DNA of 64,000 nucleotides from Pseudaquabacterium terrae. Its GTDB lineage: Bacteria; Pseudomonadota; Gammaproteobacteria; Burkholderiales; Burkholderiaceae_C. Location: positions 248,001 through 312,000 of the forward strand of contig NZ_JABRWJ010000008.1 in assembly GCF_013266755.1 (NCBI RefSeq), read 5' to 3'. Numbering within the stretch: position 1 is the first letter of the stretch; each line of letters begins with the position of its first letter. The notes below the pieces were generated by a model. The model searched no databases, was not told the DNA's origin, and worked only from the letters and a program-made list of their open reading frames with translations. This document shows, piece after piece, positions 5,942 to 11,075 of this stretch. The position numbers and the translations under genes were made by a program.

Positions 5942-6184
5942 ATGACCGCATTGCGTTTCAATGAAGTCGGCGTACTCTACTGCGCGGCCGAGATACTGAT
6001 CGACGCTTGCGAGAGATTCCCGAGTTTCTGCCGTGTGCGCTCAGCCTTTCCTCGGGAGGCTCAGGATTTTGAGCCAGTGCGAAAGGAAGATCCTCCATCA
6101 CAGATGGAGCTAAGCGCTCCAGAGGACAGCGACTTCGGTGAGTTCGCTGTCAGTGTTCTATCGTCCAAGGTACTCCTCACGTGA
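5942..6184 (+). CDS. Small hypothetical ORF, doubtful
   Basis: An 80-residue reading frame starting MTALRFNEVGVLYCAAE, with no recognised domain, signal or membrane segment. It lies in a stretch with noticeably lower GC and less biased codon use than the neighbours. Its TGA stop overlaps the GTG start of the next frame at 6181 (GTGA), an arrangement that can couple translation. It could be a real accessory gene, the remnant of one, or chance. I see no ribosome site. Confidence 0.3.
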   Translation: MTALRFNEVGVLYCAAEILIDACERFPSFCRVRSAFPREAQDFEPVRKEDPPSQMELSAPEDSDFGEFAVSVLSSKVLLT

Positions 6185-7059
6185 TAAAGCCTTTCGTTCT
6201 TGCCTGCTCACTTCTTGCCGTCACCATCAACGTTCACGGCCAGACCGCTGGGGTGGCCCTTGCTTCTGACGCATCTGCTTCCGCTCCCGCTCCGACCGTG
6301 AAGCCCCTCGACCCGGTTTTCGGCTTTCTGGTTGAAGGCGTCGACGCGGGCGGACGAGTGTCGGAGTTTTGCGGACTCGAGATGGTTTCCAAGCTCCCGC
6401 CGGGGGCGATGCTTGTCGTCGTGAAGAAGATGGACTGCAGGTCCAAGTACGGGACGTCGTATGCTGCCTCGCATCTTCGAGTGCTGCATCGCGGGAAAGA
6501 GTACTTCGTATCGCCGGAGCATGTGCGCATCACGCCGCAGGCCACGCTGAAGCTGTCAGGACGCGACGACGCAGCCACCGACTCCAGCTTGGATGCTTGG
6601 CGTCAAACTTCAAACTCGCTGCACAAACTCGCGCAGCGCGAGGCACTCAAAGCATTGGACGCCACGGGCAAGCGCGGTGTTGCCATTCTCAAGACGCGAA
6701 TTTTCGATGCTAGCGAACACACAGAAGGTACCGGATTTTCGGTGTCGGTTTACAACTCGGGCAAGAAGGCCATCAAGTACATCACCTTCAGCGTGACGGG
6801 GTTCAATGCAGTGAACGACGCGGTACGGGACCGTTTGCGCGGCAGCACGGTGGTCACCCTACGGGGCATCGGCCCCATCGAGCCGGAAGCGACCGCGTCC
6901 TACCGAAACGAGTACATGTGGTCCACTGACTTGGTCCAGAGCCATCGTGTGACGCAGGTGCGGCTAGAGTTCATGGACGGCACGAGGCGCGTTCTTGCCG
7001 ACGTGCCCAAGCTGCGGCTCAGTCCGGCGGACTACGCGGCGCTGAACGACGAAGAGTGA
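6181..7059 (+). CDS. Secreted hypothetical protein
   Basis: A 292-residue protein from a GTG start. The N-terminus MIKPFVLACSLLAVTINVHG is a Sec signal peptide, so the product is periplasmic or outer-membrane associated. The mature part begins with an Ala/Ser/Pro-rich stretch, then a mixed region containing a short Cys pair (EFCGLEM and KKMDCRSKY), and later a beta-rich module (GFSVSVYNSGKKAIKYITFSVTGFN) resembling a secreted Ig-like or FxLYD-type fold. I recognise no family. GC content is lower than the surroundings, and it abuts an IS110 element, both consistent with horizontal acquisition. A weak hairpin (CGGGC...GCCCG, 7061-7077) follows the stop codon. Confidence 0.7.
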   Translation: MIKPFVLACSLLAVTINVHGQTAGVALASDASASAPAPTVKPLDPVFGFLVEGVDAGGRVSEFCGLEMVSKLPPGAMLVVVKKMDCRSKYGTSYAASHLRVLHRGKEYFVSPEHVRITPQATLKLSGRDDAATDSSLDAWRQTSNSLHKLAQREALKALDATGKRGVAILKTRIFDASEHTEGTGFSVSVYNSGKKAIKYITFSVTGFNAVNDAVRDRLRGSTVVTLRGIGPIEPEATASYRNEYMWSTDLVQSHRVTQVRLEFMDGTRRVLADVPKLRLSPADYAALNDEE

Positions 7060-7190
7060 CCGGGCTCTTCAGGCCCGCTGCCGAACGCACCCAATGAGCA
7101 GCAAGGCAAGGCGATGACGCACTGTGCACACTGCCATAGGGCCTCATAAGGCAACCTCTCGGTTGACGACAGCCCGCATGCCGCCGCGCA

Positions 7191-7257
7191 GGGTTGTCCA
7201 CGGCGGCGGTCGGACGGCGCTTGCGACGTACCGGCCGACCGCCGCGGTGGACAACCC
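7191..7257. repeat. Large imperfect inverted repeat (23-bp arms) abutting the IS110 left end
   Basis: Arms 7191-7213 and 7235-7257 are complementary over 23 bp with one mismatch, separated by a 21-base loop. The left arm begins GGGTTGTCCAC and the right arm ends GTGGACAACCC. The candidate core dinucleotide of the IS110 left junction (GT, 7258-7259) follows the last base directly. IS110-type elements are known to prefer palindromic or repeated targets, so this is probably the structured target or a repeat already in the genome. Confidence 0.75.
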
Positions 7258-7289
7258 GTGTTCGATGCGGCTGCCGGCGCGAGGCGTCT

Positions 7290-7495
7290 TGACGAATTGC
7301 TGGAGAACGACCGAAGGTTTCAACCGACTTCCGTGCCCCTGCGGTGACTGCCCGTGGCGCTTGCCTTTCGAAGGCCCAAGTGAGACCTGCAGCCCGCGGT
7401 GGGTCGGAAGGCCACGACGGGCCCCAAGATGTAGCGCCAGGCCGAGCAAGCTGGAGCGCCTGTTTATGAGCTCCCCGCCGCGCCTTCCGACACGG
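7290..7495 (+). ncRNA. Predicted IS110 bridge RNA (target- and donor-binding loops)
   Basis: Lies between the left end and the transposase, where IS110 bridge RNAs are encoded. Target-binding loop: outer stem 7339-7344 with 7387-7392 (CTGCGG/CTGCAG, one G-U), inner hairpin GCCTT-TCG-AAGGC at 7363-7375, right target guide CCAAGTGAGAC at 7376-7386, and the left target guide probably within 7345-7355. Donor-binding loop: outer stem 7403-7412 with 7482-7491 (GTCGGAAGGC/GCCTTCCGAC), inner hairpin 7434-7459, left donor guide CCCAAGATGT at 7423-7432, right donor guide within 7460-7473. The right target and left donor guides match the element's right junction (8758-8776). The exact 5' and 3' ends are estimates. 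Confidence 0.75.
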
Positions 7496-7527
7496 ACAGT
7501 CATACCGCAACGACCAGGACTCTGTCC

Positions 7528-8757
7528 ATGAGTAGCGATGCTTGTGCGGGCGTGTTCGTCGGTCTGGACTGGGCCGTCTACGTCCATGCGGTGTGCGTCA
7601 TCGACACTGCAGGCAAGGTGCTCGATCGCTTCGAGATCGCGCACGACCGCGAGGGGTTGACCGAGCTGGTGCGACGCTTGTCGCGCTTCGGCTCGAGGCT
7701 TCGTATCGCGATCGAGCGGCCTTCGGGCTTGATCGTCGATGCGCTGGTCGAGGCCGGTCACCAGGTCTTCCCGATCCGCCCCAACGCCGTCAAGGCCAGC
7801 CGGCCGCGCTATCGCAGCCACGGTGCCAAGAGCGATGCGTCCGATGCGTACCTGCTGGCCGACCTGCTGCGCACCGACGGCCACCGCTGGTCCGCCTTGT
7901 CGCCGCAGTCCGATGCCATCCGGGCTTTGCGCGCGCTGGTACGTGCTCGCGACGATCTGATCGGTGCCCGTGTAGCGCTGGGCAATCAGCTGCTCGCAAC
8001 GCTGCAGTCCTTCTGGCCAGGTGCGGCTTGCGTCTTCGCCGACATCACCTCGCCCATCGGCTTGGCATTCCTCAAGCGCTTCCCCTCGCCGGCAGCAGCG
8101 GCACGGCTGACCGAAGCTCGCATGGCTCGCTTCTGCTGCGTCACGCATTACAGCGGTCGTCGCAGCCCGGCTGAGCTGTTGACTCGGCTGCACTCGGCGG
8201 CCCCGGGGCGCACTCCTGTGCAGACCCAGGACGCCCTGGCTCAGGTCGTGCGTTCGCTGGTTGCGGTGCTCACCCCGTTGGTCAACCAGATCACCGAGCT
8301 GACTCGGCGCATCGAACGCTTCATCGAATCGCTGCCCGACGGCCAGATCATCATGTCCTTCCCGCGAGCTGGCCACGTCTGTGCCGCGCAGATCCTGGCC
8401 GAGTTGGGCGACGTGCGCGAACGATTTCCCACCCTCGACCGGCTCGCCGCCGAGGCCGGCGCAGTGCCCGTGACCTACCAGTCCGGCAAGTCCAAGAGCG
8501 TGGCGTTCCGCTGGGCCTGCAATCACCGTCTGCGGCAAGCCATCACCTGCCTTGCTGACAACTCGCGCCATGCCAACGCTTGGGCGCGCAGCCTCTACAC
8601 CGCCGCTCGTGCTCGCGGCTGCGACCACCCGCATGCCATTCGCATCCTCGCGCGTGCCTGGCTCCGCGTCATCTGGCGCGCATGGATGGACCGCAAACCC
8701 TACGACCCCGAACTCCATCTCGGGGCCCTCAAGCTCGCTTCGGCGCAGGGAGGTTGA
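7528..8757 (+). CDS. IS110-family DEDD transposase (bridge-RNA-guided recombinase)
   Basis: Intact 409-residue transposase. The N-terminal RuvC-like DEDD domain shows VFVGLDWAVYVHAVCV (first Asp near residue 14), AIERPSGL with the Glu, and KSDASDAYLLADLLR with the paired Asp residues. The C-terminal Transposase_20 domain contains MSFPRAGHVCAAQILAELGD and the conserved serine region GAVPVTYQSGKSKS, whose serine is the proposed nucleophile in this family. The length is normal and no frameshift is seen, so it may be active. An overlapping upstream frame ending at 7531 is judged non-coding because it covers the bridge RNA. Confidence 0.95.
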   Translation: MSSDACAGVFVGLDWAVYVHAVCVIDTAGKVLDRFEIAHDREGLTELVRRLSRFGSRLRIAIERPSGLIVDALVEAGHQVFPIRPNAVKASRPRYRSHGAKSDASDAYLLADLLRTDGHRWSALSPQSDAIRALRALVRARDDLIGARVALGNQLLATLQSFWPGAACVFADITSPIGLAFLKRFPSPAAAARLTEARMARFCCVTHYSGRRSPAELLTRLHSAAPGRTPVQTQDALAQVVRSLVAVLTPLVNQITELTRRIERFIESLPDGQIIMSFPRAGHVCAAQILAELGDVRERFPTLDRLAAEAGAVPVTYQSGKSKSVAFRWACNHRLRQAITCLADNSRHANAWARSLYTAARARGCDHPHAIRILARAWLRVIWRAWMDRKPYDPELHLGALKLASAQGG

Positions 8758-8883
8758 CCCAAGATGTCTCACTTGGTGCCGTTGATCGTATTTCGGTTCG
8801 GCTCTCATTCGAACAATGCTCGACTCAAGGTGCCTCTCTCTGCGAGACTCAGCTCGTGCGCCGCTGAGTCAGTGCATTCACTT

Positions 8884-10074
8884 TCAGACCTTCGAGAGGT
8901 ATCTCTCCGCCAGCCGCACCCAGTAGCTCGCCCCGGTGCCCAGCGCCCGGTCGTTGAAGTCGTAGGCCGGGTTGTGCACGTCGCAGCCGCCGGCGTCGCC
9001 TTCGCCGTTGCCGAGCAGGAAATAGCAGCCAGGCACCCGCTCGAGGAAGAACGCGAAGTCTTCGCTGCCGGTCAGCGGTTGCAGGTCCTGGATCAAGCCC
9101 GCTTCGCCGACCCAGTCGAGCGCGACCTGGCGCGCGAACGCGGTCTGTTCGGCGTGGTTGATGACCATCGGATAGCGGCGCTGGTAGTCGATCTCGGCTG
9201 TGGCGCCGTAGACCGCGGCCTGCGTGGAGATGACCGCGGTGATGCGCTCTTCGAGCAGGTCGCGCACCTCGGGGCGGTAGGCACGCACGGTGATGCGCAG
9301 CGTCGCGGTCTCGGGGATCACGTTCGGCGCATTGCCGGCGAGAAACGCGCCGACGGTGACGATGCCCATCTCCAGCGGCGGCACGTTGCGCGAGACCACC
9401 GTCTGCAGCGCCATCACGATGCTCGATGCGGCGACCACCGGATCGACGGTGCGATGCGGCTTCGCGCCGTGGCCGCCCTTGCCGCGCACGGTGACGATCA
9501 CGCTGTCGGAGCTGGCCATCATCGGGCCGGCCCGGAAGCCGAGCTGGCCGACCGGATGGCCCGGCATGTTGTGCAGGCCGAACATCGCGTCGCACGGGAA
9601 CAGCTCGAAGAAGCCGTCCTCGATCATCTTGCGGGCGCCGCCCAAACCTTCTTCGGCGGGCTGGAAGACGAGGTGCAGGATGCCGTCGAAATGGCGCGTC
9701 GCGGCCAGGTGGCGGGCGGCCGCCAGCAGCATCGCCGTGTGCCCGTCGTGGCCGCAGGCGTGCATCTTGCCGAGCACCTGGCTCGCCCACGGCTTGCCGC
9801 TGGTCTCCTGGATCGGCAGCGCATCCATGTCGGCGCGCAGCCCGAGGCGCCTGGTCGACGTGCCGGCCTTCAGCGTGCCGACGACACCGGTGCCGCCGAG
9901 GCCGCGGTGCACCTCGAAGCCCCAGCGTTCGAGCCGCTCGGCGACCAGCGCCGAGGTGGCGTGCTCTTCGTAGGCCAGCTCGGGGCGGGCGTGGATCTGG
10001 CGCCGGATGGCGATCATCTCGTCCTCGTGGGCGCGGATCGAATCGAGCGCGGGCAGGGGCAGCGGTGCGTTCAT
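8884..10074 (-). CDS. M20 family metallopeptidase / amidohydrolase (hippurate hydrolase-like)
   Basis: A 396-residue zinc amidohydrolase, predicted to hydrolyse an N-acyl amino acid or aromatic amide in the cytoplasm. Metal-ligand motifs are present: GLRADMDALPIQE, MHACGHDGHTAMLL (His and Asp ligands), VFQPAEEGLGGA (catalytic Glu-Glu), and a late His in LTGSEDFAFFLERVPG. No signal peptide is seen. The start ATG at 10074 overlaps the stop of the upstream AraC/GlxA-type regulator by four bases (ATGA), so translation is probably coupled and the regulator likely controls this enzyme. The substrate cannot be assigned from sequence. Confidence 0.9.
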   Translation of the reverse strand: MNAPLPLPALDSIRAHEDEMIAIRRQIHARPELAYEEHATSALVAERLERWGFEVHRGLGGTGVVGTLKAGTSTRRLGLRADMDALPIQETSGKPWASQVLGKMHACGHDGHTAMLLAAARHLAATRHFDGILHLVFQPAEEGLGGARKMIEDGFFELFPCDAMFGLHNMPGHPVGQLGFRAGPMMASSDSVIVTVRGKGGHGAKPHRTVDPVVAASSIVMALQTVVSRNVPPLEMGIVTVGAFLAGNAPNVIPETATLRITVRAYRPEVRDLLEERITAVISTQAAVYGATAEIDYQRRYPMVINHAEQTAFARQVALDWVGEAGLIQDLQPLTGSEDFAFFLERVPGCYFLLGNGEGDAGGCDVHNPAYDFNDRALGTGASYWVRLAERYLSKV

Positions 10075-11075
10075 CGTCGTCGGGCGGCAGGTGAGGGACT
10101 GGCCGATTCTTGCACCGGCACCGAGCGCAGCTCGCGCACGCCGCGGCCGAGCTTGCGCCGCAGCAGCGCGCGCAGCGTCACGCCGTCGGCATAACCGACC
10201 TGGGTGGCGATGCGCTCGATGTCGTCGCGCGTCGTGCGCAGCAGGTGCAGCGCACGCTCGACGCGCAGGTCCTGCACGTAGGACAGCGGCGACTTGCCGA
10301 GCACCGCCTCGATGCGCCGCTGCAGCGTGCGCTTGCTGGTGGCCAGCGCGGCCGCGGCGTCGTCGAGCGAGAAGCCTTCGTGCAGCCGCGCGCGCGCCCA
10401 ACGCTCGAAGCGGCCGACCAGCGGATCGGCATGCGCCAGGTGATCGGGGATCACGTAAGGCGCCTGCGACGCGCGGTGGTCGACGATCAGGTACTTCGCG
10501 GTGACCGCGGCGAGCTCGGGGCTGGCCTGGCGCACCAGCCAGAGCGCCAGGTCCATGTGGCCGAGCGCGGCGCCGCTGGTGACGAAGCTGCCCGAGGGCA
10601 CCAGCATGCGCGATTCGTCGAGCCGCACCTCGGGGTAACGCTGGCGAAAGAGGGGCCCGAGCCACCACGAGGTCGTCGCGTCCTGGCCCGCGAGCAGGCC
10701 GGACTCGGCGAGCACGAAGCTGCCGATGCAGGCCGACGCGATGCGTGCGCCGCCGGCATGCCCGTCGCGCAACCACGCCGCGGCCTGCTGCACGTCGCGC
10801 CGGTCGAGCGCGGCGCACAAGGCCTCGGGCATCTTGGTGCCGATCGCCGGCACGACGATCCAGTCGGGCTGCTCGTCACCGCGCAGCGGCTGCACCGGCA
10901 CGCCGAAACCGAGCGCGGTGTGCACGCGCCGCCGCAGGCCGATCACCTGCACGTCGAACGGCGGCACGTCGAGCTGCTGGAGCGCGGCCAGCTCGTTCGC
11001 GGTGCCCAGCGTGTCGAGCACCGCGGCCAGGCCGGTATCGAACACACCGTCGAGCGCCAGCACCAGCAGCTTCAT
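10071..11075 (-). CDS. GlxA-type regulator (DJ-1/PfpI domain + AraC helix-turn-helix)
   Basis: A 334-residue regulator. The N-terminal DJ-1/PfpI-like amidotransferase fold (about 1-190) includes GGARIASACIGSFVLAESGLL, with the Cys of the nucleophile elbow. The C-terminal AraC domain (about 225-320) has two helix-turn-helices (FSLDDAAAALATSKRTLQRRIEAVLG and DIERIATQVGYADGVTLRALLRRKLG). This architecture is shared with GlxA, ArgR and GbdR regulators of amine or amino-acid catabolism. It overlaps the M20 hydrolase gene by 4 bases and is divergent from the small monooxygenase at 11185. A CGCGAA...TTCGCG inverted repeat (11078-11083 and 11101-11106) covers its own start region. Confidence 0.9.
   Translation of the reverse strand: MKLLVLALDGVFDTGLAAVLDTLGTANELAALQQLDVPPFDVQVIGLRRRVHTALGFGVPVQPLRGDEQPDWIVVPAIGTKMPEALCAALDRRDVQQAAAWLRDGHAGGARIASACIGSFVLAESGLLAGQDATTSWWLGPLFRQRYPEVRLDESRMLVPSGSFVTSGAALGHMDLALWLVRQASPELAAVTAKYLIVDHRASQAPYVIPDHLAHADPLVGRFERWARARLHEGFSLDDAAAALATSKRTLQRRIEAVLGKSPLSYVQDLRVERALHLLRTTRDDIERIATQVGYADGVTLRALLRRKLGRGVRELRSVPVQESASPSPAARRR

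What the first reader, a model, noticed from the sequence alone, without database searches (positions are those of the whole stretch)
7339..8776. IS110 bridge RNA whose guides read out the element's own right junction
CCAAGTGAGAC (7376-7386) is the reverse complement of GTCTCACTTGG (8766-8776), and CCCAAGATGT (7423-7432) is identical to 8758-8767. These two genomic segments are adjacent and share exactly GT (8766-8767). In the IS110 bridge-RNA model a right target guide pairs with the top strand right of the core, and a left donor guide repeats the top strand left of the core. The right junction of an inserted copy should then read left donor-core-right target. That is what is seen, in the right order along the RNA. 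Both guides fall in internal loops of two stem-loops that can be drawn by eye, and the right target guide is the whole 3' strand of its loop. I know of no description of this particular RNA.
Basis: partly seen in the sequence, partly recalled or inferred. Interest (0 to 1): 0.9.

Follow-up and report, generated by a model that had tools for sequence, protein, structure and literature searches.

The report
Jumping gene aimed at start codons
This is an IS110-type jumping gene whose own guide RNA aims it at the start codon of bacterial genes, and its relatives look built so that ribosomes could read straight through the insertion and restart on the interrupted gene.

Summary
The match is real and the IS110 bridge-RNA reading holds, with one correction: the core is CT (7143-7144, 8768-8769), not GT. 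The element is 7143-8767. All four guides were found; in 14 distinct relatives each covaries with its DNA partner (permutation p <= 1e-4).

Beyond the ordinary:
- In all 28 loci where it was read, the right target guide spells (A/G)TGA, a start codon.
- In 14 of 27 junction rows an ORF of at least 140 aa begins there; the ten submitted all have Pfam domains.
- The left end re-makes a start codon, with a Shine-Dalgarno-like site in 24 of 27 rows.
- A frame antisense to the element, bridge RNA included, has no stop in the non-coding region of 19 of 19 N-free elements. Outside RNA and transposase it shows no amino-acid constraint, so selection seems to keep it open rather than keep a protein.

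IS900 already has 'hed', an antisense ORF, and start-signal targeting. I found no paper joining this to the guides. The window copy is atypical: no gene starts at its junction and its left target matches poorly. Nothing about expression was testable.

The parts
7143..8767 (+). IS110-type element, 1625 bp counted from the left core CT to the last base before the right core
   Evidence: ends by homology to relatives whose same-genome copies give exact junctions, and by guide matches
7528..8757 (+). transposase/recombinase, 409 aa
   Evidence: Pfam DEDD_Tnp_IS110 3.9e-38 and Transposase_20 9.2e-15; similar to solved ISCro4 and IS621
7326..7500 (+). bridge RNA (limits of the conserved structured region; true transcript ends unknown)
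   Evidence: 14-sequence alignment and consensus fold
7351..7361 (+). left target guide CCCGTGGCG + core CT
   Evidence: LTG-LT permutation p 1e-4 over 14 elements; in the window itself only 2 of the last 7 positions match the left flank
7376..7384 (+). right target guide CCAAGTG + core guide AG; spells GTGA
   Evidence: pairs with 8768-8776 without mismatch; RTG-RT permutation p 5e-5
7423..7432 (+). left donor guide CCCAAGATGT
   Evidence: identical to 8758-8767; LDG-LD 122 of 126 against 108.5, p 5e-5
7464..7470 (+). right donor guide TTATG + core guide AG
   Evidence: pairs with 7143-7149; RDG-RD 42 of 42 variable positions against 20.7
7143..7149 (+). left junction: core CT + right donor CATAA; on the minus strand it holds the re-made start codon ATG (7147-7145)
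7154..7158 (-). Shine-Dalgarno-like GAGGT, 6 nt before the re-made start codon
8758..8776 (+). right junction: left donor 8758-8767, core CT 8768-8769, right target 8770-8776
7144..8772 (-). antisense ('hed'-like) frame, 542 codons, from GTG 8772-8770 at the right junction to TGA 7146-7144 overlapping the re-made ATG
   Evidence: frame has 0 stops in the non-coding region of 19 of 19 N-free elements
8764..8766 (+). ATG in the right end; with the ends joined in a circle it opens a 130-codon leader frame through the bridge-RNA gene to TGA 7529-7531, overlapping the transposase start
   Evidence: the full leader frame is present in 12 of the 15 Burkholderiales elements

Best explanation
An IS110-group insertion sequence that moves by bridge-RNA-guided recombination at a CT core. 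The RNA from the region before the transposase gene carries four guides: LTG and RTG read the target, LDG and RDG read the element's joined ends. In this clade the right target guide always spells (A/G)TGA, so the target core lies on a start codon, and the donor end spells the same. Insertion leaves the host's own start codon at the right end, opening a stop-free antisense frame through the element, and gives the gene body a new start codon at the left end, usually behind a Shine-Dalgarno-like site, with the antisense frame's stop overlapping it (ATGA, GTGA, TAATG, TAGTG). Ribosomes should cross the element and restart on the gene, so insertion would do little harm. Shown: four-guide covariation; ends; start-codon targets in many relatives; a stop-free, in-register frame. 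Inferred: that the RNA is made and used, that ribosomes use the frame, and that low harm is why it was selected. The bridge-RNA part alone I hold at about 0.95.
For: Recombinase identity. Ends from same-genome copies. Guides covary with partners in 14 distinct elements: RTG-RT and RDG-RD, LDG-LD, LTG-LT. Consensus fold. Junction of L002 matches the intact site of relatives with no gap around the join in 3 of the 12 loci examined. ORFs of at least 140 aa start at the junction codon in 14 of 27 rows, 10 of 10 submitted with Pfam domains; annotated genes start exactly there in L059-L061. SD-like site at the re-made start in 24 of 27 rows, control 119 of 323. Antisense frame open from start to stop in 17 of 20 rows and in relatives at 46-53% identity; 0 stops against 49 and 36 in the other antisense frames, 19 of 19 lengths 1 mod 3; CTA+TCA codons 2 against 76.2 expected in 23 clade transposases, 26 against 52.9 in 10 outgroup ones.
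Against: The window copy lies between ORFs that end towards it (6181-7059 +, 8884-10818 -), its junction codon starts only a 42-codon frame, no host SD was found, and its left target matches 2 of 7. 13 of 27 rows have no long ORF at the junction. Host-side SD-like sites are only 14 of 27 against 37% of control sites. Guides match their flanks imperfectly beyond the start codon in several copies. LDG is followed by AG, so it does not pair with the core. The elements are related, so counts are not independent, and the p-values ignore relatedness; the left junction was picked among CTCA sites by its match to RDG. No expression or transposition data.
Confidence: 0.75

Rival explanations
1. The antisense frame encodes a real protein (the 'hed' idea for IS900): start signals are targeted to express it, and rescue of the host gene is a side effect.
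For: The frame is open and in register in 17 of 20 rows; IS900's hed is named host expression dependent (PMC8141618 passage).
Against: In the left end outside RNA and transposase, substitutions fall evenly on the three codon positions of the frame (144, 151, 143 over 14 pairs that share members), and its length varies (region before the transposase 238-427 nt).
Confidence: 0.2
2. The open antisense frame is a by-product of G+C-rich codon usage; nothing selects it.
For: It is codon-aligned with the transposase gene, a frame that tends to be open in G+C-rich genes; outgroup transposases are also low in CTA+TCA, 26 against 52.9 expected.
Against: The clade has 2 against 76.2, and no TTA where the outgroup has 7; the non-coding region is open as well in 19 of 19 with 3.1 expected by shuffling, and its length keeps register. 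Ten outgroup genes is a small control and one of them, L115 at 57% G+C, gives 8 of the 26.
Confidence: 0.07
3. The core is GT.
For: GT is shared by the two matched segments of the window; GT before CA does fit the mycobacterial relatives L057 and L058.
Against: The window's left junction has no GT, and same-genome copies of three Burkholderiales relatives have CT-CA on both sides; RTG and RDG carry AG, the complement of CT.
Confidence: 0.02

Closest known systems
IS621 / IS110 bridge RNAs (Durrant 2024, PMC11208160; passages seen)
   Same: IS110 recombinase, RNA before the gene, two guide loops, four guides, CT core, junctions left target-core-right donor and left donor-core-right target
   Different: Longer right target guide match (7 nt beyond the core in the window); LDG lacks the core pairing; start-codon targets and a guarded antisense frame are not mentioned in the passages seen
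IS900 and its hed ORF (PMC8141618, passages seen; Doran 1997 seen only as a title in reference lists)
   Same: IS110 family; target motif CATGNNNNNNTCTCCTT (start-codon complement followed by what I read as an SD complement); an ORF on the complementary strand spans the whole IS and lacks its own RBS and start codon
   Different: No guide RNA, re-made start codon or in-register rule in what I read; IS900's own sequence was not examined here
seekRNA elements such as ISEc21 (Siddiquee 2024, PMC11187229; passages seen)
   Same: IS110-type with upstream non-coding region giving a target-matching RNA, exact insertion without duplication
   Different: Targets are conserved sequences inside other genes or elements; no start-codon or antisense-frame theme in the passages seen

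Membership tests
IS110 group (bridge-RNA elements) | DEDD recombinase with Transposase_20 domain | tested here: met
IS110 group (bridge-RNA elements) | structured RNA before the gene with two guide loops | tested here: met
   consensus fold of 14 sequences; single fold not exceptional
IS110 group (bridge-RNA elements) | four guides matching target and donor | tested here: met
   weak for LTG in the window copy
IS110 group (bridge-RNA elements) | core dinucleotide paired by all four guides (as stated for IS621) | tested here: not met
   LTG carries CT, RTG and RDG carry AG; LDG is followed by AG instead of CT in the 20 loci. This is a feature of IS621, not a requirement I know of for the group
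IS110 group (bridge-RNA elements) | exact insertion without target duplication beyond the core | tested here: met
   one relative only: L002 against intact sites, no gap around the join in L066, L074, L077 of 12 loci
IS110 group (bridge-RNA elements) | RNA expressed and bound by the recombinase; circular intermediate | not testable with these tools
   needs experiment
IS1111 group | subterminal inverted repeats and non-coding region after the gene | tested here: not met
   non-coding region is before the gene; none of the 20 inverted pairs listed joins the two ends
IS900-like, hed-bearing | antisense ORF over the whole element without its own start | tested here: met
IS900-like, hed-bearing | insertion at a gene's translation start | tested here: inconclusive
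   relatives yes in 14 of 27 rows; window copy no

The most novel reading that the evidence does not exclude
A clade of IS110 elements in Burkholderiales and Actinobacteria whose bridge-RNA guides are locked to start codons and whose whole body, including the gene for the guide RNA, is kept as a stop-free, in-register antisense passage ending on a re-made start codon. The insertion is translationally transparent; selection acts on openness, not on a protein; guide RNA, target choice and harmlessness evolve as one unit.
Probability: 0.6. Interest if true: 0.78.

Novelty: new variant of a known kind. Interest (0 to 1): 0.62.

Why it matters
It joins a recent discovery (RNA-guided IS110 recombination) to an old puzzle (why IS900 targets translation start signals and carries an antisense ORF) and makes both testable: guides would explain the targeting, and the frame rule would explain how such insertions are tolerated. 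It also shows a guide RNA gene that is constrained on its complementary strand.

Tried and rejected
Rejected: GT as core (left junctions); chance match (covariation); IS1111 placement; antisense frame as plain codon bias (outgroup); antisense frame as a conserved protein (not excluded).

Little or no result: Rfam at gathering scores, no match; ARAGORN, none; the joined flanks of the window copy matched only its own genome among 21 of the genus; 6 of 399 family genomes at E <= 1e-150 and 1 of 399 order genomes at E <= 1e-110 hold the element, the own genome counted in both; host-side SD-like sites only weakly enriched; 75-bp repeat end in the own genome no commoner than its control, 30 against 32; paper search for the repeats gave nothing relevant in its listing.

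Rows left out: partial loci L012, L019, L022, L023, L024; outgroup L021; L025, L027-L032 (same sequence or coordinates as L006, L007, L008-L011, L015); L020, L057-L061 and L063 were placed by hand later. The Mesorhizobium loci L035 and L056 (same insertion) have no left junction that I could place; the L056 right guide departs from its flank at one position, and its antisense frame ends away from the annotated gene start. In one search both core sites were required by the search pattern, so 'CT in all 20' is by construction there; one search is the independent evidence.

Script faults: one search crashed half way, redone; the LDG print of 47 was out of register, redone in 58; LTG extraction in 58 took the wrong CT (p 0.6-0.8), redone in 59.

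Full report
Observation. The ORF 7528-8757 is an IS110 transposase similar to the solved ISCro4 and IS621 recombinases. One copy was found in the genome.

Ends and core. Same-genome copies of three relatives (three, four and two copies) are identical inside and differ outside. For the two-copy element (L013, L014) the copies also share about 75 bases left of the junction, which I read as a genomic repeat. Left ends read CT-CAT or CT-CAC, right ends GATGT-CT-CA. In the window that gives CT at 7143-7144 and 8768-8769 and an element of 7143-8767.

Guides. 20 loci, 14 distinct guide sets, were tabulated. The right donor guide predicts the first seven bases of the left end in all 20 rows, in four classes: CTCATAA, CTCATCA, CTCATTG, CTCACTG. 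There the junction was picked among CTCA sites by this match, so four of the seven bases were given. Permuting partners among the 14 elements: RTG-RT 43.2 of 56 against 23.8 and RDG-RD 42 of 42 variable positions against 20.7, both p 5e-5; LDG-LD 122 of 126 against 108.5, p 5e-5; LTG-LT, last five positions, 55.3 of 70 against 37.2, p 1e-4. These p-values are at or near the floor of the shuffles and ignore relatedness; for RTG and LTG the partner is host DNA at separate sites, so shared descent is less of a worry. By eye in the sequences printed, the right guides of L057-L061 and L063 (actinobacteria) also match their own junctions, with GT as core in the two mycobacterial ones. The consensus fold has the guides in two internal loops, 9 of 41 pairs with changes on both sides. 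LDG is followed by AG, so unlike IS621 as described it does not pair with the core.

Targets. The right target guide spells ATGA or GTGA in the 20 loci and in L020, L056-L061 and L063, 28 in all. Read on the minus strand, the junction codon starts an ORF of at least 140 aa in 14 of 27 junction rows. Ten of the 14 were submitted to Pfam, and all ten hit: Amidase, 4HBT_2, PhnH, Cyclase, TctC, ABC_tran twice, AtuA_ferredoxin, HMGL-like/DmpG_comm, T2SSF. Annotated genes start exactly at the junction in L059-L061. For L002, which I read as lying at the gatC/gatA boundary, the joined flanks match relatives with no gap around the join in L066, L074 and L077 of the 12 loci examined; the others have gaps or reach only one side. 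Thirteen rows have no long ORF there, the window among them; L005 runs into its contig end.

A guarded antisense frame. From the start codon at the right junction a frame antisense to the transposase stays open to a stop that overlaps the re-made start codon at the left junction in 17 of 20 rows. L006 stops one codon early, L017 has a premature stop, L018 contains Ns. Relatives at 46-53% identity end the same way on TAATGAG, TAGTGAC or GTGACC. In the non-coding region the frame has no stop in 19 of 19 N-free elements, against 49 and 36 stops in the other two antisense frames; shuffles predict 3.1 open elements; all 19 lengths, 14 different values, are 1 mod 3. In the transposase genes CTA and TCA, antisense stops, occur 2 times against 76.2 expected in 23 clade members, and 26 against 52.9 in 10 outgroup genes (8 of the 26 in one gene of lower G+C); TTA 0 against 7. 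In the left end, substitutions show no codon periodicity in this frame (144, 151, 143). This fits selection for an open passage rather than a protein. An SD-like site precedes the re-made start by 5-12 nt in 24 of 27 rows (none in L002-L004, copies of one element), control 119 of 323 RTGAG sites drawn from 13 of the loci; at the host side it is 14 of 27. Ribosome passage and restart are inference.

A second, sense frame. With the ends joined as in a circle, a leader frame from an ATG or GTG in the right end runs through the bridge-RNA gene to a stop overlapping the transposase start in 12 of 15 Burkholderiales elements, not in the five actinobacterial ones tested. It rests on the same length rule as the antisense frame, so it is not independent support.

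Known and new. IS900: target motif and hed as above. The bridge-RNA and seekRNA papers, searched for start codon, antisense and related words, returned no such theme. The listings of searches show no paper whose title or abstract start joins the two. The library is open-access only and I read no paper whole, so this is weak evidence of novelty.

Verdict. The finding is real and mostly right. By itself it is a new member of a known kind; start-codon guides plus a guarded antisense frame make it a new variant, with IS900 as clear precedent.

Noticed in passing
L078-L107 (genomes of L002 and L008); left flanks of L004, L009-L011, L013, L014, L033: Short genomic repeats, about 75 bp (75-76 in tandem arrays), ending GGGCGGCCGGGCGG-G/C-G-CT-CAT, sit at start codons, read through in frame as an N-terminal extension, and carry an SD-like site and a start codon at their other end. 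The 21-base end pattern with up to 2 mismatches occurs 91 times (reversed-pattern control 12) and 46 times (control 10) in the two genomes; exact matches 17 and 11. Several of the IS copies lie at the right end of such a repeat, which their left target guide matches. How the repeats move is unknown.
   Followed up: partly
window 8764-8767 joined to 7143-7531: Leader frame through the bridge-RNA gene in the circle form, stop overlapping the transposase start.
   Followed up: partly
window 7191-7257: Strong inverted repeat GGGTTGTCCACGG.../...GGTGGACAACCC (27-nt arms, 93% complementary) between left end and bridge RNA; variants in L002, L013, L020, missing from L008. Function unknown.
   Followed up: no
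L034, right target guide: The core-pairing AG of this guide reads AC, so this copy may no longer read its own target core.
   Followed up: no
L005, right flank: The flank CTCACTGGACTAC looks like the left end of another element or repeat of this kind, i.e. insertion into a re-made start codon.
   Followed up: no
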